Both the position numbers and the translations under genes were made by a program. Source: Pseudomonas arsenicoxydans (lineage in GTDB: Bacteria > Pseudomonadota > Gammaproteobacteria > Pseudomonadales > Pseudomonadaceae). From it: DNA of 64,000 bases. The notes below the pieces were generated by a model. It searched no databases, was not told the DNA's origin, and saw only the letters and a list, made by a program, of their open reading frames with translations. Of this stretch, positions 12,837-53,603 are shown in pieces. The stretch is taken from NCBI RefSeq assembly GCF_900103875.1, contig NZ_LT629705.1, positions 4,969,001 to 5,033,000 of the forward strand, in the 5' to 3' direction. Each line of letters begins with the position of its first letter. Position 1 is the first letter of the stretch.

Positions 12837-13070
12837 CGGTGAACAACACAGAACGGACGCTTTATTGTGTCCGCTTTGACGGCAGCTTTGCGCGGGAGGC
12901 CTTCGGGCCTGCCGGGTTCCTTGGTTCCCCGGTCCTGCAGCCCCGCGCAAGCACGCGTTGGTTAGGGGGCTAATTGGAAAAAACGGCCCGCGTTTCAGAC
13001 CCGTCCTACATCTATCCAATCCCTATTGATATAGCGTCCGCATCGCTTTGAAATCAATTGAGGGATCTTT

Positions 13071-38986: not shown

Positions 38987-39155
38987 GTTGGAACCTCGCA
39001 GTGGCCATCCGTGGGCCAATTATTGGGCAGGCAAAATCCCTTGAAGTATTGCGGCGCAGCCCCCTCTCAAACACCGCATCCACGGCAAATCATATTTGCC
39101 TGAATCGCACGAATGCTCACTGGCAGACGCAGGCATTATCACGACAGCCCTTTTT

Positions 39156-40094
39156 TTATCGGCCCTGGCTTGAAACGGGGTTCAACAAAGCCTCTCGCAA
39201 CAAGCGCGCCGCCGGCGAGTCCGGTACGCCTTTGCGCGACACTAATTCATAGGGTTCGCTGCGTGAGGTGATGGGCAGCGGCAGCGTGGTGGTGAAGCCG
39301 TAGCCGGAGCAGAACTTCGCCACATCGGTCGACACCAGCGCGACGAGCGTCGGGTTTTCCTGGAGCAGCGACAGGGTGGCAAACGCCGAGGTGGTTTCCA
39401 GCAAGTGCACCGGGAATCGCAGGTCGGCCTCGTGAAATTCGCGCTCCAGCAACAACCGCATCGGCATATTGGCGCGATAGACGACCCAGCGGTAATCCAC
39501 CAGATCCTTGAGGGACAACTGCCGAGCGTAGGCGAACGGATGTTGGGTGCTGGCGATCACCGCCAGGGTTTCTTCGACGAATGTCGAGCTCTCATACAAG
39601 TAGGGCGTGGTGCTGATGGTGGTACGGCAGATCGCAAGGTCCAGGCGCCCGGCGTCGAGCTGGCTGAGCAGCGCGGCGCTGGTGTCCTCGACGATCTCGA
39701 TCGACAGTTTCGGGTTGTCGGCAATGACTCGGCTGATCGCGGTGGTCAGAAGCGGCACGGCGCCCATGATGGTTCCAACCGACACCCGGCCGCCCTCGCC
39801 GCTCATGATGCCGATGATCTCTTCGCGCAGGTGCGCGAGGTCGGTCTGGATCAGTCGGGCGTAGCGGATCACCGAGCGTCCGGCATCGTTCGGTTCAAGC
39901 CCGCGGTTAGTGCGGGTGAACAGTGAAGTGCCAAAGGTGGTTTCAATTTCCTGCAGGGCTTTGCTGGCGCCGGGCTGAGTCAGCGCGACCTGCTTGGCCG
40001 CGCCCAGCAAGGAGCCGTGCTCATCCAGGGCTATCAGCAAACGTAGCTGCTTGATGTGCAGGCGGGACATGATCGAATTGAGTGAGGGCGTCAT
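39156..40094 (-). CDS. LysR-type regulator of the adjoining catabolic cluster
   Basis: 312 residues from ATG 40094, or 304 from ATG 40070 (MSRLHIKQLRLL). Winged helix RLLIALDEHGSLLGAAKQVALTQPGASKALQEIE of the GbpR/galactose-binding-regulator type, whose relatives sense sugars and small acids. It is divergent from the 40.3-50.5 kb operon with 175 bp between starts, and a symmetrical T-N11-A box lies 6 bp upstream of its start. Probable activator of that operon. Confidence 0.9.
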   Translation of the reverse strand: MTPSLNSIMSRLHIKQLRLLIALDEHGSLLGAAKQVALTQPGASKALQEIETTFGTSLFTRTNRGLEPNDAGRSVIRYARLIQTDLAHLREEIIGIMSGEGGRVSVGTIMGAVPLLTTAISRVIADNPKLSIEIVEDTSAALLSQLDAGRLDLAICRTTISTTPYLYESSTFVEETLAVIASTQHPFAYARQLSLKDLVDYRWVVYRANMPMRLLLEREFHEADLRFPVHLLETTSAFATLSLLQENPTLVALVSTDVAKFCSGYGFTTTLPLPITSRSEPYELVSRKGVPDSPAARLLREALLNPVSSQGR

Positions 40095-40100
40095 CAGGGT

Positions 40101-40113
40101 TAACTAAAAGTTA
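40101..40113. promoter_or_regulatory. LysR-type T-N11-A box candidate
   Basis: TAACTAAAAGTTA is a perfect palindrome (TAACT-AAA-AGTTA) and fits the T-N11-A rule for LysR binding. It lies in the divergent intergenic region between the LysR gene and the catabolic operon, suiting autoregulation. A direct repeat TATCGA occurs nearby at 40120 and 40136. Confidence 0.55.
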
Positions 40114-40269
40114 TAGAGGTATCGAAAGTTGTCAGTATCGAGGCTCGCCACGACGGCCCTATAGTCCACCCCACAACCAGGCAATGCAATGGGTTTGACC
40201 CGAGATCGAAAGCTCTCCTGCCCCTGACCGATTGCAACAATAACAATCCTGTATAACTTGTGGTGAATC

Positions 40270-41409
40270 ATGTCCCTCATCAATTACGTCACCAAAATCC
40301 AGTTCGGCTACGACAGCCTGCAGCATCTGGCCGCCGAAGCCGAGCGCGCCGGGATTACCCGTCCGTTGATCGTCACTGACGTCGGCGTGCGCCGTGCCGG
40401 CATCGTCGACAAGGTCATCGCAGCCCTCGGCGCTGAGCGTACACCGACGATTTTCGACGCCACTCCGTCCAATCCCAACGAACACGCGGTGCGTGAAGCC
40501 GTCGAGCAATACCACCTGGGTGAGTGCAACGGCATCATCGCGGTGGGTGGCGGTTCTTCGATTGATCTGGCCAAAGGCGTCGCGGTTTGCGCCACTCACG
40601 ACGGCCCTCTGCAAAGCTTTGCGGTGATCGAAGGCGGACTGGATCGCATTACCTCGGCCACCGCGCCGCTGATTGCCATTCCGACCACCGCAGGCACCGG
40701 AAGCGAAGTCGGCCGGGGCGCCATTCTGATCCTCGATGATGGCCGCAAGGTGGGCGTGATTTCGCCATATGTCGTGCCTCGCGTGGCCATCTGCGACCCG
40801 GAACTGACCCTGGGTTTGCCAGCGATGCTGACCGCCGCCACCGGCATGGACGCGATCGCCCATTGCATCGAGACGTTCATGGCGCCGGCCTTCAATCCTG
40901 CCGCCGACGGCATTGCCCTCGATGGCCTGTGGCGCGCGTGGGAACACATCGAGCGCGCCACCACCGAGCCCGGTGATCGCGAAGCCCGGATGAACATGAT
41001 GAGTGCGTCGATGCAAGGCGCGCTGGCCTTCCAGAAAGGACTGGGCTGTGTGCACAGCTTGTCCCACGCCCTGGGCGGCATCAATCCGAAACTGCACCAC
41101 GGCACGTTGAACGCGATTTTCCTGCCCGCCGTCGTCGACTTCAACGCCAACGCGCCCACCGTTCGCGACGAACGCAAGCTCGAACGCCTGCGCCATGCCA
41201 TGGGCCTTGCGGCCGGCGCCAATATCGGTGAAGCCATCGAAGACATGACCCGACGCCTGGGCCTGCCAACGCGCCTGAGCGAGATCGGCGTCGACCCAAG
41301 CCTGTTCGCCGGCATTGTCGAAGGCGCCCTGCACGATCACAGCCACAAGACCAATCCCCGCGAAGCATCGCCCGCGGATTACCTGTCGATGCTCGAACAA
41401 TCGCTGTAA
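40270..41409 (+). CDS. Iron-containing (group III) alcohol dehydrogenase
   Basis: 379 residues. GGGSSID (93-99) binds NAD(P); metal ligands are in register with the FucO type: Asp194, His198 (GMDAIAHCIE), His262 (VHSLSHALGG) and His277 (LHHGTLNA). It converts an alcohol to an aldehyde or ketone, or works in the reverse direction. The HSLSHALGG and PTTAGTGSEV patterns are also close to maleylacetate-reductase-like enzymes. First gene of the catabolic operon; a 75-bp gap to the crotonase gene contains no terminator. Confidence 0.92.
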   Translation: MSLINYVTKIQFGYDSLQHLAAEAERAGITRPLIVTDVGVRRAGIVDKVIAALGAERTPTIFDATPSNPNEHAVREAVEQYHLGECNGIIAVGGGSSIDLAKGVAVCATHDGPLQSFAVIEGGLDRITSATAPLIAIPTTAGTGSEVGRGAILILDDGRKVGVISPYVVPRVAICDPELTLGLPAMLTAATGMDAIAHCIETFMAPAFNPAADGIALDGLWRAWEHIERATTEPGDREARMNMMSASMQGALAFQKGLGCVHSLSHALGGINPKLHHGTLNAIFLPAVVDFNANAPTVRDERKLERLRHAMGLAAGANIGEAIEDMTRRLGLPTRLSEIGVDPSLFAGIVEGALHDHSHKTNPREASPADYLSMLEQSL

Positions 41410-41484
41410 GCAGCCGCTATCCAACAACAATAAATCAGGAGGCAACCGCAGCGTCGAACGCGATTCGACGCCAGCGGAACAATC

Positions 41485-42264
41485 ATGAAGCCCACCGTCC
41501 TTATCGACCGGCAAGACAACCTTGCCATTGTCACCCTCAGTCATCCGGGAAAAATGAACGCCCTGACCTTGTCCATGTGGCAGGACCTGGGTGACGTCAT
41601 GACCGAACTGGCCGCCGATACCAGCGTTCGCTGCGTGGTGTTGCGCGGCGCTGGCGAGCAAGCGTTTGCCGCCGGCGCCGATGTCGGTGAGTTTCCCGCT
41701 GTGCGCGCCAATCAGGCGCAAGCCCGGGTCTATGCCGACGTCACTTCCAGGGCCATGCGCGCGGTTGCCGACTGCCCTCACCCGGTGATCGCAATGATCC
41801 ACGGCGTGTGCGTCGGCGGCGGCCTGGAAATCGCCGCACTGTGCGATCTGCGCATCTGCGGCACCTCCAGCCGCTTCGGCGCGCCGGTCGGCAAGCTGGG
41901 GCTGGTCATGTCCTATGACGAAATGGCCGGTCTGGTGGCATTGGCCGGACGTTCGACCACCCTGGAAATCCTTCTCGAAGGGCGGATTCTCGACGCCAAC
42001 GACGCCTACGTGAAACACCTCGTGACCCGCGTCGTCGCTGATAGCGAGGTCGAATCCGAAACCCTCGCCACCGCCAGGCGCATCGCCAATGGCGCCCCCC
42101 TCGTCGCCCGCTGGCATCGCCAGGCTGCACGCCAGCTTGAGGCCGGCGTCGCGCCCACCGCCGAGCAGGTCGACAGCAGTTACAGCTGCTACGACACCGA
42201 CGATTTTCAGATCGGCCTGAACGCTTTCATCGCGAAAGCCAAACCACAATTCAAGGGGAAATAA
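41485..42264 (+). CDS. Enoyl-CoA hydratase/isomerase (crotonase) family protein
   Basis: 259 residues. Oxyanion-hole segments AAGADVGEF and GVCVGGGLEIAAL are present and the first catalytic Glu is kept (Glu115), but the second, normally in GQPE, is Gly136 (APVGKLGL). So simple syn-hydration by two glutamates is not expected and it may catalyse isomerisation, a retro-aldol or a decarboxylation instead. The next gene starts 1 bp after its stop, so the two are tightly coupled. Confidence 0.9.
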   Translation: MKPTVLIDRQDNLAIVTLSHPGKMNALTLSMWQDLGDVMTELAADTSVRCVVLRGAGEQAFAAGADVGEFPAVRANQAQARVYADVTSRAMRAVADCPHPVIAMIHGVCVGGGLEIAALCDLRICGTSSRFGAPVGKLGLVMSYDEMAGLVALAGRSTTLEILLEGRILDANDAYVKHLVTRVVADSEVESETLATARRIANGAPLVARWHRQAARQLEAGVAPTAEQVDSSYSCYDTDDFQIGLNAFIAKAKPQFKGK

Positions 42265-42265
42265 C

Positions 42266-43474
42266 ATGGGACCGCTGACAGGAATGCGCGTGGTAGAACT
42301 GGCTCACATCATGTCCGGCCCGGTGTGCGGCATGATGCTGGCCGACATGGGCGCCGACGTGGTGAAGGTCGAGAAAGTCCCGGACGGTGACGACTCGCGC
42401 CGCTTCTCGCCGATCATGGCCAGCGGTGAATCCGCTTCGTTCATGGTGGTCAACCGCAACAAGCGCGGCATTGGCCTGAACCTGAAAACCGAGGGCGGGC
42501 GCGACGTGTTGCGTCGCCTGTTGATGGACGCCGATGTGGTCACGGAAAACTATCGCGCCGGCACCATGGAGAAATTTGGCCTCGGTTACGAGACCTTGAA
42601 AACCCTCAACCCGGGGCTGATCTACTGCGCGATTTCCGGTTACGGCCGCAGCGGGCCGTTCGGCGAAAAAGGCGGTTTCGACCTGATCGCCCAAGGCATG
42701 AGCGGCATGATGAGCATGACCGGTGAAGCCGGGCGTGAGCCGGTCAAGGCCGGTTCGCCGGTGGCCGACATCAACTCCGGCATCCTCGCCGCCCTCGGCA
42801 TCTGCGCAGCCTACGCGGCCAAACAGAAAACCGGTCTTGGGCAGATGGTCGACACCTCGCTGTTCGAAGCCGGTCTGCAACAGATGTACTGGCCGGCGGC
42901 CGCGTATTTCGCCGATGGCACCATTCTGCCGAAGATGGGTTCGGCCAACTCCACCAGCGCGCCATATCAGGTGTTCCGCACCGCAGACGGCTGGATCAAC
43001 ATTGGCGCCGCCAACCAGGCCAACTACGAACGACTGGTCGAAGCGCTCGCCGTGCCGCAACTCAAGGCCGACCCGCGCTTCGCCAGCAACGCGTTGCGCA
43101 TGGAACATCGCCTGGCTCTGGTGGAAATCCTCAACGAAGTGCTGGTCGCGCGCACCACGGATGAATGGATGGTGCTGTTCGACAGCCTCGGCCTGCCTGC
43201 CGGGCCTGTGCTCGATATCGCCGCAGCGCTGGCACATCCGCAAACCAAGGCCCGCGGCATGGTCGTGGAAACCGAACACCCCACCGAAGGCCGGGTGCGC
43301 GGCATGGGCCTGCCGATCCACTTCTCCGACATGGACAACGCCGCGCCACCGACCAGTCGCCCTGCTCCACTGCTGGGCGAGCACACCCGTGAAGTGCTGA
43401 AGGAAAGTGGCTTTTCGGAAACCGAAATCGACGAGTTGATTCGATCCCGGGCGGTGGTAGCACTGGCGTCCTGA
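42266..43474 (+). CDS. CaiB/BaiF-family (class III) CoA-transferase
   Basis: 402 residues. VVELAHIMSGPVCGMMLADMGADVVKVE and the catalytic Asp168 (SPVADINSG) are classic for formyl-CoA:oxalate-like transferases, and the C-terminal domain (LGEHTREVLKESGF) is complete. It moves CoA from a donor thioester to a carboxylic acid, activating it without ATP. It starts 1 bp after the crotonase stop and uses AAGGGGAAA at the end of that gene as its ribosome site. It probably activates the acid imported by the TRAP system. Confidence 0.93.
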   Translation: MGPLTGMRVVELAHIMSGPVCGMMLADMGADVVKVEKVPDGDDSRRFSPIMASGESASFMVVNRNKRGIGLNLKTEGGRDVLRRLLMDADVVTENYRAGTMEKFGLGYETLKTLNPGLIYCAISGYGRSGPFGEKGGFDLIAQGMSGMMSMTGEAGREPVKAGSPVADINSGILAALGICAAYAAKQKTGLGQMVDTSLFEAGLQQMYWPAAAYFADGTILPKMGSANSTSAPYQVFRTADGWINIGAANQANYERLVEALAVPQLKADPRFASNALRMEHRLALVEILNEVLVARTTDEWMVLFDSLGLPAGPVLDIAAALAHPQTKARGMVVETEHPTEGRVRGMGLPIHFSDMDNAAPPTSRPAPLLGEHTREVLKESGFSETEIDELIRSRAVVALAS

Positions 43475-43528
43475 CCCGTTACCCAAGCCTGAATCCATTA
43501 TTAAAACAAAAACAACAAGGTGAACATC

Positions 43529-44572
43529 ATGAGCCGTATCTTGACCGAGGCCGTCAGCCGCCGATCATTTCTAGTGTCTGCCGGCGTCACCGTGGGCGGT
43601 GCATTCGCCGCCAACCTGCTGCCTTCCAGCGTCTTCGCCGCGACCAAACCGATTGTGTTGCGCTACACCAGCAGCCTGCCCGACACCCATCCGTTGAATA
43701 AACAGATGAAGGCCGCGTCCGAAGCCATCAAGGCCGAAACCAACGGCGCCGTGGACCTGCAGGTGTACGCCAACGGCGCCATGGGCGGCGACACCGACAT
43801 GTTGTCCCAGGTGCGTGCTGGCGCCATCGATTTCATTCCGCTGCCTGGCGCGATTCTCTCCACGCTGGTGCCGGCCATGTCGATTGAAAGCATGCCGTTC
43901 GCTTTCAAGGACTACGACAGTGTCTGGGCCGCGCTGGACGGCAAGCTGGGCGAGCACGTCCGGGCCAAGACCGAGAAAGTCGGCCTGATCCCGATGGAGA
44001 AAGTCTGGAACAACGGCTTCCGCCAGATCACCAGTTCGACGCGACCGATCAACACCCCGCAAGACCTCGCCGGTTTCAAACTGCGAGTGTTGGTCAGCCC
44101 GCTGTGGACCTCAATGTTCAGCGCCCTTGGCGCCTCCCCGACCGGCATCAGCATCAACGAGACCTACTCGGCGTTGCAGACCAAAGTCGTCGACGGCCAG
44201 GAAAACCCGTTGGTGGTGGTCGAGTCCGCGCGCTTCTATGAAGTGCAGAAATATTGCTCCTTGACCGACCATATCTGGGGTGGCTTCTGGATCGTCGCCT
44301 CGGGCAAGACCTTCCCGAAACTGCCCGCCGACGTACAGGAAATCGTCTCCCGCCAAATCAACGCCGCCGCGCTGGTGCAGCGTCAACAGGTCATCGACCT
44401 CAACGCCAGCCTGGAACCGTCCCTGACCGCCCACGGCATCACCTTCAACAAAGTCGACCGTTCGTTGTTCCGGGCTGACCTGCAATCCAAAGGTTTCTAC
44501 ACCCAATGGAAGGAAAAGTACGGCCCCGAAGCCTGGAGCTTGCTCGAGCAGTACGCGGGTCAACTGTCCTAA
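43529..44572 (+). CDS. TRAP transporter substrate-binding protein (DctP family) with Tat signal
   Basis: 347 residues from ATG 43529 (AAGG 8 bases upstream). The signal carries a twin-arginine motif SRRSFL (10-15) and ends near VFAA. The DctP fold is clear: LRYTSSLPDTHPLNKQM, GGDTDMLSQVRAGAIDF, MEKVWNNGFRQITSSTRPIN with the ligand-carboxylate arginine region, and GQENPLVVV. It captures a carboxylate in the periplasm and delivers it to the DctQM permease encoded next. Tat export suggests folding before export. Confidence 0.93.
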   Translation: MSRILTEAVSRRSFLVSAGVTVGGAFAANLLPSSVFAATKPIVLRYTSSLPDTHPLNKQMKAASEAIKAETNGAVDLQVYANGAMGGDTDMLSQVRAGAIDFIPLPGAILSTLVPAMSIESMPFAFKDYDSVWAALDGKLGEHVRAKTEKVGLIPMEKVWNNGFRQITSSTRPINTPQDLAGFKLRVLVSPLWTSMFSALGASPTGISINETYSALQTKVVDGQENPLVVVESARFYEVQKYCSLTDHIWGGFWIVASGKTFPKLPADVQEIVSRQINAAALVQRQQVIDLNASLEPSLTAHGITFNKVDRSLFRADLQSKGFYTQWKEKYGPEAWSLLEQYAGQLS

Positions 44573-44587
44573 GCCGGAGACAAGGTC

Positions 44588-46486
44588 ATGAAAAACCAAC
44601 TACCCATGACGGATGTTTCTCCCGCTGAAGGACTCAGCCCACACCAGGCCACATTTCGTCTGGGCCGCGCACTCGACACCGGGTTGCGCTGGCTGACTGA
44701 AGGCAGCGCGGCGTTGCTGGTGGTTATCGAAGTCACGCTGCTGTTTTGCAATGTGTTCTCTCGCTACGTGCTCAATCAACCCATCGTCTGGGGAGATGAA
44801 CTGGCCTCGCTGCTGTTTCTGTGGCTGGCGATGCTCGGTTCGGTAGTGGCGATGCGTCGCGGCGAGCACATGCGCCTGACCTCGTTTATCGGGCGCTTGC
44901 CGCTTGAGAAGCGCGCCTTTGTCGACACCTTGGGCGCGGTGATCGTCATCACGTTCATCGGGTTGCTGTTCACGCCGGCCTGGGAATACGTCAGTGACGA
45001 GTGGATCATCACCACGGCGGCCCTGGAAATCCCCAACGCTTTTCGCGTGTCGGCTATCGCGGTCGGTCTGAGCCTGATGCTGATGACCTGTGTCGCGCGG
45101 CTGCTGACCAGCGCCCGGCTGATCGATTTCTCGGTGTCGGTGGCGATGCTGGCCTCCCTGGCCGGGTTGTTGTGGGTGGCTGAAGGTTCTCTGCTGCTGA
45201 TGGGCAACTGGAACCTGGTGGTCTTCTTCATGATCGGCGTAATGGCCATGATCGTCATCGGCGTGCCGATCATGGTCGCGTTCGGCCTGGCGACCGTGGC
45301 GTACCTGTCGACCATGACCAGCACGCCGCTGACCCTGGTGGTCGGGCGGATGGACGAGGGCATGGCGAGCCTGATTCTGCTGGCCATTCCGCTGTTCGTG
45401 TTCCTCGGTGCGTTGATTGAAGCGATGGGCATGGCCCGCGCAATGATCCACTTCCTCTGCTCGCTGATCGGCCATGTCCGTGGCGGCCTGTCTTATGTGC
45501 TGATCGGCGCGATCTACCTGATCTCCGGCATTTCCGGTTCCAAGGCTGCTGACATGGCGGCCATCGCCCCGGCGCTGTTTCCGGAAATGAAGAAACGCGG
45601 CGAGGATGAAAACGAACTGGTGGCGATGCTCAATGCCTCCGGTGCGATGTCGGAAACCATTCCGCCGAGCCTGGTACTGATCACCATCGGTTCGGTGACC
45701 GGGGTGTCGATTTCGGCCCTGTTCACCGGCGGTTTCATGCCGGCAGTGGTGGGCGCCATCGCGATGGCGGCGGTGATCTGGTGGAAAAACCGCAAAGGCG
45801 TGGTCACCACCGGCAAACGCGCCTCGGCCAAGGAAATCGGGCATGCGCTGCTGGTGGCGTTACCGGCCCTGGCCCTGCCCTTCGTGATCCGCACCGCCGT
45901 GGTCGAAGGGGTGGCCACCGCCACCGAAGTCGCCGCCATCGGCGTGGCCTACACCTTCATCGTCGGGTTGCTGTGCTACCGCTGCTTTGACTGGCGTCGG
46001 CTGTACCCGATCCTGGTCAGCACCGCGTCGCTGTCCGGCGCGATCCTGATCATCATCGGTAGTGCGACCGCCATGGCCTGGGCGTTGACCCAGTCGGGCT
46101 TCTCCCACCAATTGGCGCAAGTGATGTCGACCGTGCCCGGTGGCGCGCTGGGGTTCCTGATCATCTCCGCCGTGGCGTTCATCCTCCTGGGCAGTTTCCT
46201 GGAAGGCATCCCGGCCATCGTGCTGTTCGGGCCACTGCTGTTTCCGATTGCCAAGACCATGGGCATCAACGACGTGCATTACGCGATGGTCGCGATCTTC
46301 GCCATGGGCCTGGGCTTGTTCGCCCCACCGTTTGGCGTGGGTTTCTATGCCGCGTGCGCCATCGCCAAGGTCGACCCCAGCGGCGCCATGCGCCGGGTCT
46401 GGCCGTATCTGGGCGCGCTCGTTGTCGCCCTCGGGGTGCTGATCGCCGTGCCATGGATCTCCATCGGTTTCCTGCCCACCACCTGA
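44588..46486 (+). CDS. TRAP transporter permease, DctQ-DctM fusion
   Basis: 632 residues. The first 200 or so form the small DctQ part with four helices (VLNQPIVWGDELASLLFLWLA), then comes the large DctM part with about 12 helices (GVPIMVAFGLATVAYLS, RMDEGMASLILLAIPLFVFLGALIEAMGMA, SGSKAADMAAIAPALFPEMKKRG). Fused QM permeases are a known TRAP variant. Na+-coupled import of an organic acid. 15 bp after the binding protein gene. Confidence 0.93.
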   Translation: MKNQLPMTDVSPAEGLSPHQATFRLGRALDTGLRWLTEGSAALLVVIEVTLLFCNVFSRYVLNQPIVWGDELASLLFLWLAMLGSVVAMRRGEHMRLTSFIGRLPLEKRAFVDTLGAVIVITFIGLLFTPAWEYVSDEWIITTAALEIPNAFRVSAIAVGLSLMLMTCVARLLTSARLIDFSVSVAMLASLAGLLWVAEGSLLLMGNWNLVVFFMIGVMAMIVIGVPIMVAFGLATVAYLSTMTSTPLTLVVGRMDEGMASLILLAIPLFVFLGALIEAMGMARAMIHFLCSLIGHVRGGLSYVLIGAIYLISGISGSKAADMAAIAPALFPEMKKRGEDENELVAMLNASGAMSETIPPSLVLITIGSVTGVSISALFTGGFMPAVVGAIAMAAVIWWKNRKGVVTTGKRASAKEIGHALLVALPALALPFVIRTAVVEGVATATEVAAIGVAYTFIVGLLCYRCFDWRRLYPILVSTASLSGAILIIIGSATAMAWALTQSGFSHQLAQVMSTVPGGALGFLIISAVAFILLGSFLEGIPAIVLFGPLLFPIAKTMGINDVHYAMVAIFAMGLGLFAPPFGVGFYAACAIAKVDPSGAMRRVWPYLGALVVALGVLIAVPWISIGFLPTT

Positions 46487-46526
46487 ATCACTCTTTGACT
46501 GTCAGCACTCAAATACGAGGTTTCTC

Positions 46527-46985
46527 ATGAATTTCTCCACGCTCGAAGCAGGCACCGCCACCGAACGCAAACTGGTCGTCGACAAGGAACGCACCATCTC
46601 GTTTCTGGGCGAAGACTTGCGCATCTACGCCACGCCTCGCCTGGTGGACGACATCGAACTGACGTGCCTGGACTACCTGCTGACCTTCCTCGATGAGGGC
46701 GAAAACACCGTCGGGGCCGCGGTCGATATCCGCCACGTCGGCGCCACGCTGCTGGGCATGTCAGTCAGCATCGTCGCCACAATCACCCGCATCGAGGGGC
46801 GCAGCGTCACGTTCAACGTCGAGGTACGCGATGACGTCGAACTGGTCGCGACAGCAGCCCATACCCGGGTGGTGGTGAACGTCGCCAAACTGCGCAGCCG
46901 CGTGCAGGCCAAGGCTGATGCGGCCGCCGCCGGAGAAGTCGAAGACGGCGTGCTCAGCCCTTCACAATTCGCCGCCTCGCGCTGA
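46527..46985 (+). CDS. FlK-like hotdog thioesterase
   Basis: 152 residues. The segment IYATPRLVDDIELTCLDYLL then TVGAAVDIRHVGAT is the active-site region of the fluoroacetyl-CoA thioesterase (FlK) group, with Glu44 and His70 at the positions of its catalytic Glu and His. It would cleave an acyl-CoA, either the pathway product or a toxic dead-end ester. Lies in the operon after the TRAP permease (40-bp gap). Confidence 0.85.
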   Translation: MNFSTLEAGTATERKLVVDKERTISFLGEDLRIYATPRLVDDIELTCLDYLLTFLDEGENTVGAAVDIRHVGATLLGMSVSIVATITRIEGRSVTFNVEVRDDVELVATAAHTRVVVNVAKLRSRVQAKADAAAAGEVEDGVLSPSQFAASR

Positions 46986-47000
46986 ACAAGGGCCCACGTC

Positions 47001-47960
47001 ATGATCACGCTGCACGAACGCAATGGCCTGCCCAACCTTGCGGCCGAGGATGCGCTGCCGATTGTCGATGCTCACCACCACTTGTGGGACTTGGGCAACG
47101 GGCGTTATCCGTGGCTGCAGGATGAGTATCACGAAGATTTTTTCCTCGGCGACTATCGCAGCCTTTGCCGTGATTTCTTGCCGGAAGACTTTCTCGCCCT
47201 GACCGAAAAACAACGGTTGGTCGGCACGGTGCATGTCGAGGCGGAACGGGCCCGCGATGAGCAGGTGGCCGAGACACGCTGGCTGGAACAGGTGAATGCG
47301 CGTTACGGCTTCCCGAATGCCATCGTTGCCCATGCCTGGTTCGACCGTGAGGACAGCGCGCAGATTCTTGCGGCCCAGGCCGCCAGGCCGCTGGTCAAAG
47401 GCATTCGCTCCAAACCCGTCACGTCGCCATCGCCCGAAGTGTCGATTGCGGGCGCCAAGGGCACCATGCAGGACCCGAAATGGCTGGAAGGTTTTGCGCG
47501 CCTGGCCGATCACGACCTGTCGTGGGACTTGCGCGTGCCACCGTGGCATTTGGTCGAGGCCGCTGAAGTAGCGGCGATGTTTCCGCAGATCCGCATCGCG
47601 CTCAATCACACCGGTTTTGCCTGGGATCGCAGTCCGCAAGGCATGGCCCGGTGGCGCAAAGGTCTGGAAGCCCTGGCCCTGCAACCCAACGTGCACATCA
47701 AACTGTCGGAGTTCGGGTTGAAAGACTCGCCCTGGCACTACGACGACAACCGGATCGTGGTGCTGACCGCGCTGGAGATCTTCGGCCCCGAGCGCTGCAT
47801 GTTCGCCAGCAACTTCCCGGTCGCCGGATTGCGCGCGTCCTACGACACGATTGCCGACGGCATGGCCGCGATGCTCGCGCCTCTGGGCCGGGCTGTACAA
47901 GAAGCCGTATTCGCCGGCAATGCACGACGTTTTTATCGTCTGGAGGAACAGCATGGATGA
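47001..47960 (+). CDS. COG3618-type amidohydrolase/lactonase, copy 1
   Basis: 319 residues. A TIM-barrel metal-dependent hydrolase: IVDAHHHLWD supplies the HxH pair (His25/His27); central GIRSKP and SWDLRVPPWHL strands; LNHTGF; near the C-terminus RCMFASNFPV. The family includes L-fuconolactonase, 2-pyrone-4,6-dicarboxylate hydrolase and sulfomuconolactonase, all lactone hydrolases. In those the last motif has Asp (GSDWP); here it is Asn. A tandem paralogue follows with an 8-bp overlap. Confidence 0.9.
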   Translation: MITLHERNGLPNLAAEDALPIVDAHHHLWDLGNGRYPWLQDEYHEDFFLGDYRSLCRDFLPEDFLALTEKQRLVGTVHVEAERARDEQVAETRWLEQVNARYGFPNAIVAHAWFDREDSAQILAAQAARPLVKGIRSKPVTSPSPEVSIAGAKGTMQDPKWLEGFARLADHDLSWDLRVPPWHLVEAAEVAAMFPQIRIALNHTGFAWDRSPQGMARWRKGLEALALQPNVHIKLSEFGLKDSPWHYDDNRIVVLTALEIFGPERCMFASNFPVAGLRASYDTIADGMAAMLAPLGRAVQEAVFAGNARRFYRLEEQHG

Positions 47961-48894
47961 CCGTGCACGCTTTCTGGCCAGTGGCGAGGATGCGGACTTG
48001 CCCATCGTCGACGCTCACCAGCATTACTTCGATATCGAACAGCATTACTACCCGTGGCTGAACGACCGGCCGTTGCGGCCTTTTCGCTACGGCGATTATT
48101 CGGCGATCTGCCGCAATTTTCTGCCCCAGGACTATCGCCGGCTGACAGGCCACCATCGCATCGTGCAGACGGTCGTCATCGAAGGTGAATGGGACCCCGC
48201 GACGCCCACCGATGAAGTGAGGTTCGTCGAGTCGCTGGCACACGACGAACCCACCCTGGCGGCAATGGTCGCGCAGGCCTGGCTCGATCGTGAAGACGCC
48301 TCGCAGCTCTTGCGCCAATACGGCGACCATCCGCTGGTACGCGGCGTACGCCACAAACCGGCGGTGACCAGCCTTGAAGCCTGGCGCGAAGATTTCGTCG
48401 CGCCAGGTTCGATGCGCGATCCGCGCTGGCGCGAGGGTTACGCCCAACTCGCTGCAAATGGCCTGCACTTCGAGTTGCAGGCGCCCTGGTGGCATCTGGC
48501 GGAAGCCGCCGAGTTGGCCAGGGACTTCCCGGACGTGACCCTCGTGGTCAATCACACGGCGCTGCCGGCGGATCGTTCGGAAGAAGGCTTGGCTGGCTGG
48601 CGGAAAAACCTCGCCTTGCTGGCACGGGAGCCGAATGTCGCGCTGAAGATTTCCGGCATCTGCATACCGGGCAAGGCGTGGCCCGTGGAGGCGAACCGGG
48701 TCGTGGTCAACGATGCGATTTCGATTGTCGACGTCAGCCGCTGCGCATTTGCCAGCAATTACCCGGTGGACGGCGTCGTCAACGGCATGAGCGAGATCTT
48801 CGATGGCTTCAAAACGATCACCCGCGACCGCTCCCCAACCGATCGGCTCGCCCTGTTTCATGACAACGCCCGGCGCATTTACCGGCTTGCTTGA
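47953..48894 (+). CDS. COG3618-type amidohydrolase/lactonase, copy 2
   Basis: 313 residues from ATG 47953, inside the end of copy 1. LPIVDAHQHYFD gives the HxH pair (His22/His24); FRYGDYSAICRNFLPQDY, VQTVVIEGEWDP, VRGVRHKP and CAFASNYPVDG parallel copy 1, so the genes arose by tandem duplication and then diverged. The second metal-site motif again has Asn in place of Asp. The two may form a heteromer or act on successive lactones. Confidence 0.9.
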   Translation: MDDRARFLASGEDADLPIVDAHQHYFDIEQHYYPWLNDRPLRPFRYGDYSAICRNFLPQDYRRLTGHHRIVQTVVIEGEWDPATPTDEVRFVESLAHDEPTLAAMVAQAWLDREDASQLLRQYGDHPLVRGVRHKPAVTSLEAWREDFVAPGSMRDPRWREGYAQLAANGLHFELQAPWWHLAEAAELARDFPDVTLVVNHTALPADRSEEGLAGWRKNLALLAREPNVALKISGICIPGKAWPVEANRVVVNDAISIVDVSRCAFASNYPVDGVVNGMSEIFDGFKTITRDRSPTDRLALFHDNARRIYRLA

Positions 48895-48924
48895 CCCTCA
48901 TTGAACAGCCCTTCAGGAGTTCCC

Positions 48925-50502
48925 ATGTTTGAAGTTTCAGGCCACAACTACATCGCCGGCGCGCGTTCCGCACAAGGTTCGACCACCTTGCAAAGTCACG
49001 ACGCGCGCACCGGCGAAGCACTGCCGTATCACTTCCACCAGGCGACCGTGGATGAAGTGAACGCGGCCGCAGAAGCAGCGGCCACGGCTTACCCAATCTT
49101 CCGGCAGCTTTCAGCTGCACGCCGCGCGCAGTTTCTGGACGCCATTGCCACCGAGCTTGATGCGCTGGACGACACGTTCATTGCCCTGGTGTGCCAGGAA
49201 ACCGCCCTGCCCGCCGGCCGCATTCAGGGGGAGCGCGCCCGCACCAGCGGCCAGATGCGCCTGTTCGCCACAATGCTGCGTCGCGGCGACTTCTATGGTG
49301 CGCGCATCGACCGTGCATTGCCGGACCGCCAACCGTTGCCGCGTCCCGACCTGCGCCAATACCGCACCGGACTCGGCCCGGTCGCGGTGTTCGGTGCCAG
49401 CAACTTCCCGCTGGCCTTCTCGACTGCCGGCGGCGACACCGCCTCGGCGCTGGCTGCGGGCTGCCCGGTGGTGTTCAAGGCCCACAGCGGCCACATGGCC
49501 ACCGCCGATTACGTCACCGATGCAATCACCCGTGCCGCGCGCAAGACCGGCATGCCCGAAGGCATTTTCAGCCTGCTTTACGGCAGCGTCGGCGAGGCAC
49601 TGGTCAAGCATCCGGCGATCCAGGCAGTCGGTTTCACCGGTTCGTTGCGCGGTGGTCGGACCTTGTGTGACATGGCGGCAGCACGCCCTCAACCGATCCC
49701 GGTGTTCGCCGAAATGAGCAGCATCAACCCTGTCGTGCTGATGCCCGACGCACTCAAGGTTCGCGGTGACAAGATTGCGGCCGACCTGAGCGCTTCCGTG
49801 GTGCTGGGTGCAGGTCAGTTCTGCACCAATCCCGGTCTGGTGCTGGGCATTCGTTCGCCCGAATTCAGCGCTTTCCTCGAACGCTTCAGCGCTTTGATGA
49901 GCGCACAACCGGCGCAAACCATGCTCAACAGCGGCGCCTTGAAAAGCTATTGCCATGGCCTCGACAACCTGCACACTCACCCCGGCATCACGCACCTGGC
50001 CGGCGCTGCGCAACAGGGCAATCAGGCGCAGCCGCAAGTGTTCAAGGCCAACGTCAGCCTGTTGATCAACGGTGACGAGTTGCTTCAGGAAGAAGTCTTC
50101 GGCCCGACCACCCTGATCGTCGAAGTCGCCGATCACGCCGAACTGCTCCAGGCCCTGCACGGTTTGCGCGGCCAATTGACCGCGACGCTGATGGTCGAAG
50201 ATTCGGACGTCGCGACCCTGGGCGACATTCTGCCGCTGCTGGAACAGAAAGTCGGACGTGTGCTGTTCAACGGCTATCCGACTGGCGTGGAAGTCTGCGA
50301 TGCCGTGGTCCACGGCGGTCCTTACCCGGCGACATCGGATTCGCGCGGCACCTCGGTCGGGACGTTGGCAATCGACCGCTTCCTGCGCCCCGTGTGTTAC
50401 CAGAACTGCCCCGACAGCTTGTTGCCGGACGCCCTGAAGAATGCCAACCCGTTGAGCATTGCCCGACTGGTTGACGGCGTCAGTTGTCGCGATGCGCTGT
50501 AA
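48925..50502 (+). CDS. NADP-type aldehyde dehydrogenase, 2-ketoglutarate semialdehyde dehydrogenase-like
   Basis: 525 residues from ATG 48925 with AGGAG upstream. Catalytic Cys in GAGQFCTNPGLV and Glu in FAEMSSINPVVL; GFTGSLRGGR is the cofactor loop. The long form with a C-terminal DALKNANPLSIARLVDG belongs to the alpha-ketoglutarate semialdehyde dehydrogenase branch used in sugar-acid and hydroxyproline catabolism, though related substrates are possible. Last enzyme gene of the operon; 30 bp after copy 2 of the amidohydrolase. Confidence 0.93.
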   Translation: MFEVSGHNYIAGARSAQGSTTLQSHDARTGEALPYHFHQATVDEVNAAAEAAATAYPIFRQLSAARRAQFLDAIATELDALDDTFIALVCQETALPAGRIQGERARTSGQMRLFATMLRRGDFYGARIDRALPDRQPLPRPDLRQYRTGLGPVAVFGASNFPLAFSTAGGDTASALAAGCPVVFKAHSGHMATADYVTDAITRAARKTGMPEGIFSLLYGSVGEALVKHPAIQAVGFTGSLRGGRTLCDMAAARPQPIPVFAEMSSINPVVLMPDALKVRGDKIAADLSASVVLGAGQFCTNPGLVLGIRSPEFSAFLERFSALMSAQPAQTMLNSGALKSYCHGLDNLHTHPGITHLAGAAQQGNQAQPQVFKANVSLLINGDELLQEEVFGPTTLIVEVADHAELLQALHGLRGQLTATLMVEDSDVATLGDILPLLEQKVGRVLFNGYPTGVEVCDAVVHGGPYPATSDSRGTSVGTLAIDRFLRPVCYQNCPDSLLPDALKNANPLSIARLVDGVSCRDAL

Positions 50503-50632
50503 ATCGCGGCAACCCGGCTTCAACTAACACCGACGGTTAACAACAACTCCCGCGCCTGTGAACAACAGGCGCCGGATTCGCTCGTCCTGAAAACCGCTTC
50601 ACCCCCACAACAACAAAAACAGAGGAAGTCTC

Positions 50633-51205
50633 ATGCACGTTCAACTTCACCCGAAACACCGCGTTTGCAAATTGATGCTGGCCGTGGCCGCCGCCGTGAT
50701 GATCAACACCACAGGCATGCAACTGGCCGCCGCTGAAACCACTCCCGCCGCGACGACAGCCCCCATGCAATGTGCCACTGAAGCCACACCGCGTTACACC
50801 AAGACCCCCACCGGCTACCTCATGGTCCTGCGCATGGGCGATAACGCCTTCAAGGAACTGACCAAACTGGCCATCGCCGAAAAAATCCCCAGCGCCTCCA
50901 TCACCGGCATCGGCTTCGGCAATGTGAAGTTCGGTTTCTGGAACAAGGACAAGAAAGACTTCGACGCCAAGATCTTGAACAGCGTCGAGATGGCGAGCAT
51001 CACCGGCTCCGTGGCATGGAAGAACGATCAGCCTTCGATCCATATGCACGGCGTCGCCGGTGACGCCACGTTCCAGGCATACGGCGGCCACATCCTTGAC
51101 TTCGAGGTCACCACCGGCTCGATGGAAATCACCGTGATCGTCCATCAGCTTCGTCTGGAACGCGGCATTGACCCGTGCATCGGCGCCAACGTGCTGGGTA
51201 TCTAA
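50633..51205 (+). CDS. Secreted PPC/DUF296-domain protein
   Basis: 190 residues. N-terminal signal (about 1-34, MLAVAAAVMINTTGMQLAAA) and then a PPC/DUF296 domain: YLMVLRMGDNAFKELTKLA, IPSASITGIGFGNVKFGFWN, SIHMHGVAGD and YGGHILDFEV. The domain is best known from plant AT-hook proteins and cytoplasmic bacterial trimers, where the His residues may bind metal. Export of such a domain is unusual. It lies between the dehydrogenase gene and an OprD porin gene and may belong to the uptake or sensing part of the cluster. Confidence 0.83.
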   Translation: MHVQLHPKHRVCKLMLAVAAAVMINTTGMQLAAAETTPAATTAPMQCATEATPRYTKTPTGYLMVLRMGDNAFKELTKLAIAEKIPSASITGIGFGNVKFGFWNKDKKDFDAKILNSVEMASITGSVAWKNDQPSIHMHGVAGDATFQAYGGHILDFEVTTGSMEITVIVHQLRLERGIDPCIGANVLGI

Positions 51206-51303
51206 CTCAAGCTGCACGCTCCCGCATGCCGTTTTCCTTGCCGGCATTCGCTGCGGCGGGAGCCACTCTCCCCTATTCAAACTACAAAAAAAGGGCGGTT
51301 TCG

Positions 51304-52611
51304 ATGAGCAATAAAACCACGGCGATAACAGTTGCACTGGGCGCCATTGCATTGAGCACCCAGGCGCACGCCGACTTCCTGAGTGACAGCAAAGCCACCT
51401 TGGGATTGAGGAACTTCTATTTCAACAACGACAACCGCGACGGCACGGCCGCGCCTTCGAAAACCGAGGAATGGGCGCAGGGCTTCATGCTCGATTACAA
51501 GTCGGGCTATACCGATGGCACGGTCGGTTTTGGCGTTGATGCATTGGGCTTGATGGGGATCACGCTGGACAGTGGCAAAGGACGGCATGTCGGCAGTTCG
51601 ATGATCCCTTCGGACAGCGACAACCGCGCCGTCGACGAGTGGAGCCGGCTGGGGTTGACCGGCAAGGTCAAGGTCTCGAAAACCGAATTGCGCCTGGGCA
51701 CGCTGATGCCGAAGTTACCGATCCTGGTAGCCAACGACGGGCGCCTGCTGCCGCAAACCTTTGAAGGTGGCCAGGTCACCTCGGGCGAGTTCAAGGATTT
51801 GACCTTCACCGCCGGGCGAATCGAACACGCCACCGGTCGCGGTTCAACCGACCAGACGGGTTTGGCCGCCACCGGCGGCACCCGTGAAAGCAATGCGTTC
51901 GACTTCGCCGGCGGCGACTGGAAAATCACCAAGGACCTGACCGCGCAGTATTACTACGCCAACCTGGACGACTACTACACCCAACAGTTTTTCGGCTTGA
52001 TCCACACACTGACGATCTCGGAAGGACAGTCGCTGAAAACCGACTTGCGCTACTTCAAGACCGATTCCTCCGGCAAAAACAGTTCGGGCACCTCGGGCTA
52101 CAGGATCAGCGGCTTTACCAAAGGCAATGATGGCGAGATCGACAATAAAACCTGGAGCGCCGCGCTGATTTACACCGTGGGTGGCCACGGCATCACCGCC
52201 GGCTATCAAAGCGTTTCCAGTGGCAGCAACTTCACGCAGCTCAATCAGGGCAACCTGGCCGATAAAGGAGCTGGCGGCAGCAGTCTTTACCTGTACACCG
52301 ACCGTCTGATTCAAACCTTCACCCGCGCGGGCGAGCGCACCGCCTTCGGTCAATACGCCTACGACTTCGCGGCCATGGGTGTACCCGGACTGAAAGCTTC
52401 CGTCATCTACCTGAGTGGGGACGATATCAAGACGACCTCGGGTGACTCCCAGAAGGAATGGGAGCGCGACATTGCCCTGGACTATGTGATTCAGTCCGGT
52501 TCGCTTAAAGGAGTCGGTTTTGGATGGCGCAACGGCAAGTCCAACAGCGAAGCGACGCGTGACCAGGATCAGAATCGCTTGATCGTGAGCTACAGCATTC
52601 CCTTGCTTTAA
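51304..52611 (+). CDS. OprD-family outer membrane porin
   Basis: 435 residues from ATG 51304. Signal peptide to ALSTQAHA-DFL; then SKATLGLRNFYFNNDNRDG, EEWAQGFMLDYKSGYTDGTVGFGVDALGL and a C-terminal NRLIVSYSIPLL that fits an 18-strand barrel. OprD members pass basic amino acids (OccD) or carboxylates and aromatics (OccK). Placement at the end of the TRAP cluster suggests it supplies the same carboxylate. Confidence 0.92.
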   Translation: MSNKTTAITVALGAIALSTQAHADFLSDSKATLGLRNFYFNNDNRDGTAAPSKTEEWAQGFMLDYKSGYTDGTVGFGVDALGLMGITLDSGKGRHVGSSMIPSDSDNRAVDEWSRLGLTGKVKVSKTELRLGTLMPKLPILVANDGRLLPQTFEGGQVTSGEFKDLTFTAGRIEHATGRGSTDQTGLAATGGTRESNAFDFAGGDWKITKDLTAQYYYANLDDYYTQQFFGLIHTLTISEGQSLKTDLRYFKTDSSGKNSSGTSGYRISGFTKGNDGEIDNKTWSAALIYTVGGHGITAGYQSVSSGSNFTQLNQGNLADKGAGGSSLYLYTDRLIQTFTRAGERTAFGQYAYDFAAMGVPGLKASVIYLSGDDIKTTSGDSQKEWERDIALDYVIQSGSLKGVGFGWRNGKSNSEATRDQDQNRLIVSYSIPLL

Positions 52612-52637
52612 CCATCCACGAACTGTGTAGGAGCTGT

Positions 52638-52736
52638 GTAGGAGCTGTCGAGTGAAACGAGGCTGCGATCTTTTGATCTTGCTTTTAAAGATCAAGATCA
52701 AAAGATCGCAGCCTCGTTTCTCTCGACAGCTCCTAC
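52638..52736. repeat. Long inverted repeat, family B, copy 3
   Basis: Arms of 43-49 bp: GTAGGAGCTGTCGAGTGAAA...GATCTT and its complement, one mismatch in the shared 33 bp (GAGTG versus GAGAG) and extended by GATC-rich sequence toward a short centre. Starts 27 bp after the OprD stop; a partial GTAGGAGCTGT repeat just before shows a small tandem duplication of the arm start. Confidence 0.9.
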
Positions 52737-52862
52737 AGGGTTATAGGTGGCTTTGGAGATTCGTTCTCTGGCAATAAACTGTCAATCAGCTGAACCCGTT
52801 TCTACTTCGCATAGAGCGAGTATGGGCGATTGATAAATCAGGATAAAAAAAAATAAATCAGG

Positions 52863-53171
52863 TTGGTCTGGTAGGTTTCACTGACCAGCATCCTCGCCTT
52901 GAACGTCAACTCCGGCACCGCCGCTGTCGAGGCATAGACGCGTGATGCGCTTGCGCGCATCGATGTCTTGCTCGAAGAAGCCGGTTCGTCCAGAAAGCAG
53001 ATGCTGCAGACTACTATCTGGCTGGCTGACATGGCAGATTTCGAAGCGATGAAAGCCGTGTGGGATGCCTGGGTCCCAACGGGGCACGCGCCGGCTCGCG
53101 CCTGTGGTGAGGCGAAACTGGCGGACCCACGGTTATTGGTGGAAATCATCGTTTGCGCGGCGAAAGGCTGA
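52863..53171 (+). pseudogene. RidA/YjgF-family remnant
   Basis: From 52938 the frame reads [40 protein letters not shown] and [10 protein letters not shown], a clear RidA C-terminal two thirds. Directly before it GCA is followed by TAG (52935-52937) where CAG would give the usual QTRD, and a second TAG occurs at 52872; the conserved first strands are unrecognisable. A TTG at 52968 could start a 67-residue fragment, but it would lack half the fold. RidA removes reactive enamine/imine intermediates, so it may once have served the cluster. Confidence 0.78.
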
Positions 53172-53288
53172 GTTTTCCAGCAGACGCTTTTGAACGTATA
53201 ACGCATCATCAGGGAACTCCTGACAGCCCCCATGCATCCTAAATTATGAGGTACTTCTTTTTTGCTTCACGCTTCAGAGGACTTTGCC

Positions 53289-53603
53289 ATGCGCCGTCTG
53301 ATCATCGTTTCATCATTCATATTGTGCTTACCCTTCGGTTCGGCCTTCGCCAAAGTGGATGCTGGCGATGTCGCCACCTCAGCCGGGGTTTCTGCGTCGC
53401 TGTACTCGACGTTCAAGGATCACAAACTGGCGATTCCCGCCCGTGATGATGCCTCCAGCTTCGTGGCCAGTGGCGGTACGATTCGTGGGGTGTACCTGGA
53501 ATCGGTGTTGAATCAGATCCGCCAGGACAATCCCGGCCTCAAAGCCAGCGACGAAGAGTTGGCCAGAGCCATCCTCATTCAGGAAAGCACTGCTGGTCAG
53601 TAA
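53289..53603 (+). CDS. DUF2388 family small exported protein
   Basis: 104 residues from ATG 53289, preceded by AGAGGA. Signal peptide MRRLIIVSSFILCLPFGSAFA. The mature part has the family pattern STFKDHKLAIPARDDASSFVASGGTIRGVYLESVLNQIR. Such proteins occur in several copies in Pseudomonas genomes; function unknown. Confidence 0.87.
   Translation: MRRLIIVSSFILCLPFGSAFAKVDAGDVATSAGVSASLYSTFKDHKLAIPARDDASSFVASGGTIRGVYLESVLNQIRQDNPGLKASDEELARAILIQESTAGQ

What the first reader, a model, noticed from the sequence alone, without database searches (positions are those of the whole stretch)
40270..52611. Possible undescribed catabolic pathway: TRAP + CoA-transferase + crotonase + twin lactonases + semialdehyde dehydrogenase + OprD
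Nine tightly packed genes plus a porin encode outer and inner membrane uptake of an organic acid, ATP-free CoA activation, a crotonase lacking one catalytic Glu, a thioesterase, two lactonase-like hydrolases and two oxidoreductases. I know of no named pathway with this exact set. A lactone or hydroxy-dicarboxylate opened to a semialdehyde and then to a 2-oxoglutarate-like acid is a consistent, unproven scheme.
Basis: partly seen in the sequence, partly recalled or inferred. Interest (0 to 1): 0.8.

Follow-up and report, generated by a model that had tools for sequence, protein, structure and literature searches.

The report
Conserved operon for unknown organic-acid breakdown
A soil-bacterium gene cluster that probably imports an unidentified organic acid and breaks it down by an uncommon mix of CoA chemistry and lactone-opening enzymes related to those found beside genes for breaking down sugar acids; the enzymes are of known kinds, but the pathway they form could not be matched to a described one.

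Summary
Nine genes (40270-50502) run on one strand with gaps of -8 to 75 nt, followed by an exported PCC-domain gene and an OprD gene, with a divergent LysR gene. Among 80 fetched loci the cluster recurs in all 15 of Pseudomonas and in 10 of 12 of Caballeronia, Burkholderia, Paraburkholderia and Pandoraea; a putative LysR site is kept in 23 of those loci and the window. It is one inherited unit. Its core is TRAP, CoA-transferase, crotonase, both amidohydrolases and PCC; thioesterase, ALDH and porin are absent from some loci. New here: (1) both 'lactonases' group with those of loci holding WD40, PdxA and enolase-dehydratase genes, a set like the L-ascorbate route I recall from Ralstonia eutropha, but no WD40 homologue and only distant PdxA/enolase relatives (30-40%) were found in this genome; (2) the ALDH is of the 2-oxoglutarate-semialdehyde type by kinship (77% paralogue beside GguC); (3) the LysR+Fe-ADH pair recurs with such an ALDH in other Pseudomonas; (4) crotonase+CoA-transferase is a recurrent pair. 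Most likely: a dedicated pathway from an unidentified hydroxy acid through a carboxylated lactone and a CoA ester to a semialdehyde and 2-oxoglutarate. Substrate and step order are unproven.

The parts
39156..40094 (-). LysR-type regulator, divergent from the operon
   Evidence: Pfam HTH_1 and LysR_substrate; 14 of 14 testable Pseudomonas loci and 9 of 10 other cluster loci (71-74%); the tenth, L049, has only a 45% LysR elsewhere in the locus
40109..40122 (+). Conserved putative LysR site AGTTATA-N3-GTAT in the LysR/Fe-ADH intergenic region
   Evidence: Kept in 23 loci and the window, all that were aligned; upstream of the crotonase gene in L049; one exact match in the whole genome, the reversed control pattern also 1
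40270..41409 (+). Iron-containing alcohol dehydrogenase of the 4-hydroxybutyrate dehydrogenase family
   Evidence: NF058672 639.9 bits, cut-off 500
41485..42264 (+). Crotonase-fold enzyme; first catalytic Glu kept, second replaced by Val
   Evidence: ECH_1 3.3e-45; alignment
42266..43474 (+). Family III CoA-transferase
   Evidence: CoA_transf_3 2e-126; below the cut-off of all 7 NCBIfam models matched
43520..44572 (+). TRAP solute-binding protein DctP
   Evidence: TIGR00787 228.4 bits, cut-off 175; best solved relative 4oan, E 2.6e-116
44588..46486 (+). Fused TRAP permease DctQM
   Evidence: DctM 9.1e-106 and DctQ 6.1e-26
46527..46985 (+). FlK-type hotdog thioesterase
   Evidence: PF22636 1.8e-30; absent, with 18-42 nt of room, in 4 of 10 non-Pseudomonas cluster loci
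47001..47960 (+). AH1, COG3618-type amidohydrolase (lactonase family), strand-8 Asn
47953..48894 (+). AH2, second COG3618-type amidohydrolase, overlapping AH1 by 8 nt
   Evidence: PF04909 2.8e-34; start read from the sequence printed
48901..50502 (+). Aldehyde dehydrogenase, 2-oxoglutarate-semialdehyde type by kinship
   Evidence: Solved relatives 3v4c and 1eyy; 77% paralogue beside GguC and a sugar-acid dehydratase
50633..51205 (+). Exported PCC-domain (DUF296) protein
   Evidence: PF03479 1e-16; in 25 of 25 cluster loci; downstream of ALDH in Pseudomonas, divergent upstream of LysR in the others
51304..52611 (+). OprD-family porin
   Evidence: PF03573 2.6e-139; 14 of 15 Pseudomonas loci, 0 of 10 other cluster loci

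Best explanation
A LysR-controlled operon for uptake and catabolism of one organic acid. OprD (in Pseudomonas) and the TRAP system bring in a hydroxylated, probably branched carboxylate. The family III CoA-transferase moves CoA onto a carboxylate, from succinyl-CoA or from the product CoA ester, and the single-Glu crotonase changes the acyl-CoA (hydration, dehydration or decarboxylation). The acid passes through one or two carboxylated lactones that AH1 and AH2 open. Fe-ADH oxidises an alcohol to an aldehyde and the ALDH oxidises that semialdehyde, most likely 2-oxoglutarate semialdehyde, to 2-oxoglutarate. FlK clears dead-end thioesters and is dispensable. Shown: gene set, conservation, a shared putative operator, family membership and kinship of AH1/AH2 and ALDH. 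Inferred: all activities, the order of steps and the class of substrate.
For: Cluster in 25 of 80 loci, in two bacterial groups, with Fe-ADH..AH2 in the same order. Operator-like site in all 24 intergenic sequences aligned, one exact site in the genome. ALDH 77% to a paralogue beside GguC (563 bits, cut-off 340) and a sugar-acid dehydratase, and 74% to the ALDH in G078 and G064 where LysR+Fe-ADH recur; GguC confirmed for G078. A tree node of support 0.996 holds the AH1 of 25 cluster loci, L111 and ten WD40-linked AH1; one of 0.998 holds AH2 of the cluster and of WD40 loci L062 and L072. A crotonase lies within about 2 kb of the CoA-transferase in 10 of 12 fetched loci, out of 16 non-own hits.
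Against: ALDH is missing from 8 of 10 non-Pseudomonas cluster loci (L094's 25% hit on the other strand not counted) and Fe-ADH from 1, so the last steps may be done elsewhere or the end product may differ. ALDH scores far below the NCBIfam 2-oxoglutarate-semialdehyde model (95 of 770). AH1/AH2 have Asn at the strand-8 Asp position, so hydrolysis is not assured. DctP relatives (47-54%) occur in 22 of 397 other genomes and none of the 20 regions fetched held the rest of the cluster, so the binding protein does not name a substrate. The operator-like pattern's reversed control also matches once in the genome, and the site was not seen in L057, which has a 63% Fe-ADH. Six of the ten crotonases beside other CoA-transferases are only 32-34% identical to this one.
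Confidence: 0.5

Rival explanations
1. Substituted gamma-butyrolactone pathway: AH1/AH2 open a substituted gamma-lactone to a 4-hydroxy acid, Fe-ADH makes a succinate-semialdehyde analogue, ALDH makes a substituted succinate, and only then the CoA-transferase and crotonase act, as for itaconate- or mesaconate-type diacids.
For: Fe-ADH passes the 4-hydroxybutyrate dehydrogenase model. Among the CoA-transferase's best matches are models and chains named for succinate/glutarate, mesaconate and hydroxymethylglutarate.
Against: No lyase and no MaoC-type hydratase among the operon's genes; the rest of the genome was not searched for them. The CoA-transferase is below every cut-off (332 of 750, 266 of 700). 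The ALDH's closest kin lie beside sugar-acid genes.
Confidence: 0.2
2. A CoA-dependent branch of the ascorbate-type 2-carboxyaldonolactone route: the CoA-transferase/crotonase pair takes the place of the WD40/PdxA/enolase steps, for example by decarboxylating or dehydrating a CoA ester of the opened carboxy-aldonate.
For: Both lactonases group with those of WD40 loci. ECH+CoAT and WD40 share no locus among 80: 0 of 29 against 10 of 51. The genome gave no WD40 match at E 1e-10 and only 40/32% and 34/30% relatives of the enolase and PdxA.
Against: The exclusivity test is not corrected for phylogeny (largely one clade against its sister; Fisher p 0.011). PdxA-like genes at 46-49% do lie near ECH+CoAT in L067, L087, L217, L218 and L219. 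WD40-linked AH1 also occur outside that tree node (L189-L191). The ascorbate route is recalled; I could not read it.
Confidence: 0.2
3. A patchwork of independent modules (LysR/Fe-ADH/ALDH, lactonases, TRAP/CoAT/ECH) that lie together without making one pathway.
For: Each module occurs without the others elsewhere.
Against: Order kept in 25 loci of two groups while flanks change: the left neighbour 37649-39019 is beside it in 10 of the 14 Pseudomonas loci that reach that far, right-hand neighbours in 4. Gaps of -8 to 75 nt.
Confidence: 0.1

Closest known systems
L-ascorbate catabolism of Ralstonia eutropha (Stack et al. 2020, recalled, not read)
   Same: COG3618 amidohydrolases that group with those of loci whose WD40/PdxA/enolase content fits that route; a 2-oxoglutarate-semialdehyde type ALDH
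   Different: No WD40 match in the genome and only distant PdxA and enolase relatives; instead Fe-ADH, CoA-transferase, crotonase and thioesterase
Non-phosphorylative pentonate (Weimberg-type) route, with a gene cluster in this genome at G000:C1:4056000-4071000
   Same: 77% identical ALDH; LysR+Fe-ADH and a 74% ALDH recur with GguC in G078
   Different: No dehydratase or GguC in this operon; CoA chemistry and lactonases added
Gamma-butyrolactone (Blc/Att) operon of Agrobacterium (recalled)
   Same: Logic of lactonase, Fe-ADH, semialdehyde dehydrogenase
   Different: The Blc lactonase is, as I recall, of another fold; CoA-transferase, crotonase and TRAP are extra
Itaconate degradation of Pseudomonas (ict-ich-ccl, recalled)
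   Same: Family III CoA-transferase with TRAP genes
   Different: No lyase and no MaoC-type hydratase in this operon; lactonases, Fe-ADH and ALDH added

Membership tests
4-hydroxybutyrate dehydrogenase (NF058672) | Score over the curated cut-off | tested here: met
   639.9 of 500 bits
4-hydroxybutyrate dehydrogenase (NF058672) | Activity on 4-hydroxybutyrate | not testable with these tools
   Needs an assay
COG3618 lactonase | Amidohydrolase-2 fold nearest to a COG3618 structure (AH1) | tested here: met
COG3618 lactonase | Strand-8 Asp as in 4dlf | tested here: not met
   Asn in 81 of 81 and 36 of 36 rows and 118 of 120 listed homologues; 6uvz also has Asn
Ascorbate-type 2-carboxylyxonolactone route | WD40-like rearrangement enzyme (recalled) | tested here: not met
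   No match at E 1e-10 in the genome (the tool gives no positive control, but the same query matches 13 fetched loci, its own included)
Ascorbate-type 2-carboxylyxonolactone route | PdxA-type decarboxylase and enolase-superfamily dehydratase (recalled) | tested here: not met
   Not in the operon; elsewhere only 34/30% and 40/32% relatives
Ascorbate-type 2-carboxylyxonolactone route | Lactonase of the same clade | tested here: inconclusive
   Joined at 0.996 and 0.998; no characterised sequence was in the tree
2-oxoglutarate-semialdehyde dehydrogenase | Score over the NCBIfam equivalog | tested here: not met
   95.2 of 770; the 74% relative beside GguC in G078 also fails it, 108 of 770
2-oxoglutarate-semialdehyde dehydrogenase | Close kin beside sugar-acid genes | tested here: met
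   77% and 74%
Enoyl-CoA hydratase | Two catalytic Glu | tested here: not met
   Second replaced by Val
Succinyl-CoA:glutarate or mesaconate CoA-transferase | Score over the equivalog cut-off | tested here: not met
   332 of 750; 266 of 700
Itaconate degradation operon | Citramalyl-CoA lyase and MaoC hydratase beside the CoA-transferase (recalled) | tested here: not met
   No such family among the operon's genes

The most novel reading that the evidence does not exclude
A second, CoA-dependent way to degrade carboxylated aldonolactones of the vitamin C breakdown type: lactonases and semialdehyde dehydrogenase kept, but the rearrangement/oxidative-decarboxylation/dehydration steps replaced by a CoA-transferase and a single-Glu crotonase acting as an acyl-CoA decarboxylase or dehydratase, with an exported PCC-domain protein taking part in the periplasm.
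Probability: 0.2. Interest if true: 0.75.

Novelty: new variant of a known kind. Interest (0 to 1): 0.5.

Why it matters
If right, it joins two chemistries that are usually apart, sugar-acid lactone opening and CoA-transferase/crotonase chemistry, and would give a function to a crotonase/CoA-transferase pair that recurs in several proteobacterial families and to an exported PCC-domain protein. The operon is compact, conserved and in a culturable genus, so its substrate can be sought by ordinary growth tests.

Tried and rejected
Substrate from DctP: the best solved relative is 4oan (I recall a ligand modelled as acetolactate; not checked). Of 31 match places listed, our own included, 20 regions were fetched; apart from TRAP genes they held only a weak LysR (28%) and two weak crotonase hits (25-27%). 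Lead dropped.

Galactarate-type operon beside the cluster in L049: first read as replacement genes, then rejected. A 45% LysR on the other strand (11957-13069) lies between AH2 and that operon, so the called start of the dehydratase is probably wrong and the operon separate.

Literature: ten searches. Six returned nothing at the terms set; the listings showed no title or abstract start describing this gene set, and only two papers were opened, for passages: PMC12746152 (riboflavin) and PMC11893276 (Caballeronia symbiosis). The library holds openly licensed papers only, so absence from print is not shown. No Rfam family at gathering score in 38500-53500. Promoter and terminator scans were at chance level (4 found, 2.9 expected; one found, 13.9 expected). 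The PcaQ resemblance of the LysR (115 of 304 bits) was not followed.

The tree holds the window's AH2 (through L165) but not its own AH1; its 97% relative in L033 stands for it. In one search L037, cut before the crotonase gene, counts as lacking the pair. A first count of the left neighbour was wrong and was redone (10 loci).
Full report
What is there. The window lies in a one-contig 6.5 Mb genome of the same genus as records named Pseudomonas. Between 39156 and 52611 there are a divergent LysR gene, nine genes on the + strand (Fe-ADH, crotonase, CoA-transferase III, DctP, fused DctQM, FlK-type thioesterase, AH1, AH2, ALDH) and then a PCC-domain gene and an OprD gene. The nine are packed with gaps of -8 to 75 nt.

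It is one unit. Of 80 named loci fetched with an AH1 profile, the cluster is in all 15 Pseudomonas loci (L037 is cut by a contig end) and in 10 of 12 loci of Caballeronia (6), Burkholderia peredens, Paraburkholderia and Pandoraea; L060 and L104 are the two without it. Fe-ADH..AH2 keep order and strand wherever present. PCC lies downstream of ALDH in Pseudomonas but on the other strand beyond LysR in the others (in L049, which lacks that LysR, upstream of the crotonase gene). In all 25: CoA-transferase, DctP, DctQM, AH1, AH2, PCC; crotonase in 24 of 24 testable; Fe-ADH in 23 of 24; FlK in 21 (in the other four only 18-42 nt separate DctQM and AH1); ALDH in 17 (a 25% hit in L094 not counted); OprD in 14, all Pseudomonas. 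Flanks differ: the left neighbour is kept in 10 of 14 Pseudomonas loci that reach it, right-hand neighbours in 4. Among 199 same-genus genomes drawn, our own included, AH1 at 89% or more is in 9; those 9 have an Fe-ADH over the family cut-off, as do 4 others without such an AH1.

Regulation. The LysR/Fe-ADH intergenic region is 174-179 nt in 23 loci and the window; AGTTATA-N3-GTAT, and a TATAACT just upstream of the Fe-ADH start, are kept in all 24 sequences. The site occurs once in the genome, but so does the reversed control; a slightly shorter form has no match in 0.94 Mb of the other loci. It is kept upstream of the crotonase gene in L049, where Fe-ADH and the operon's LysR are gone, and upstream of Fe-ADH in L183; L184-L186 have near variants by eye; L057 has none. 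This fits a pathway-specific regulator; binding is not shown.

The oxidoreductases. Fe-ADH passes the 4-hydroxybutyrate dehydrogenase model (639.9 of 500). The ALDH has a 77% paralogue at G000:C1:4062498, beside a GguC protein (563 bits, cut-off 340) and a divergent IlvD-family sugar-acid dehydratase that falls just short of the arabinonate model (843 of 882): by content a pentonate route through 2-oxoglutarate semialdehyde. In two other Pseudomonas (G078, G064) the LysR+Fe-ADH pair (75% for Fe-ADH) sits with a 74% ALDH but without the CoA genes; GguC was confirmed for G078, and G064 has a look-alike not scanned. Fe-ADH and this ALDH thus recur together near sugar-acid genes. The NCBIfam 2-oxoglutarate-semialdehyde model is not met (95 of 770).

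The CoA part. The CoA-transferase is below every named model's cut-off. In 12 of its 16 non-own relatives whose surroundings were fetched, a crotonase lies within about 2 kb in 10, five of them with TRAP genes just upstream; six of these crotonases are only 32-34% identical to ours. The crotonase keeps the first Glu and lacks the second, as does 4k2n; I recall that methylmalonyl-CoA decarboxylase also departs from the two-Glu pattern, so decarboxylation is as possible as hydration. FlK is missing in 4 of 10 non-Pseudomonas cluster loci, so thioester hydrolysis by it is not obligatory.

The PCC protein. A short protein with a conserved HxHG-AGD-GGH pattern accompanies the cluster in 25 of 25 loci. 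Its N terminus looks Sec-like in Pseudomonas and twin-arginine-like in the others; this is my reading of the 13 of 26 rows printed, not a prediction. Its role is unknown.

Judgement. A real, conserved, probably co-regulated catabolic operon that no pathway I could search matches gene for gene. The most supported scheme ends in a semialdehyde and 2-oxoglutarate, passes through a carboxylated lactone and uses a CoA ester. The substrate is not identified. All enzyme families are known, so I rate it a new variant of a known kind.

Noticed in passing
50633-51205: PCC/DUF296-domain protein with a signal-like start, kept in all 25 cluster loci; twin-arginine-like start in Caballeronia and Pandoraea, Sec-like in Pseudomonas (by eye).
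   Followed up: partly
37646-39019: Sorbosone-dehydrogenase-like protein (name by look, not scanned) left of the LysR gene, beside the cluster in 10 other Pseudomonas loci but outside the operon.
   Followed up: no
40252-40258: A second conserved element, TATAACT, just upstream of the Fe-ADH start in all 24 aligned sequences.
   Followed up: no
L167 (G000:C1:4056000-4071000): Pentonate-type gene cluster (IlvD-family dehydratase, MFS by look, GguC, ALDH) in the same genome.
   Followed up: yes
L183: An Fe-ADH/LysR pair with the exact operator-like site, beside a 52% ALDH match and what look like transposase genes (not scanned).
   Followed up: no
L049 11957-19445: Paraburkholderia tagetis: a galactarate-dehydratase-type operon, probably with its own LysR, directly follows AH2.
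   Followed up: partly
L101 7483-8979: An aconitase-X gene lies between AH2- and crotonase/AH1-type genes in an alphaproteobacterial assembly.
   Followed up: no
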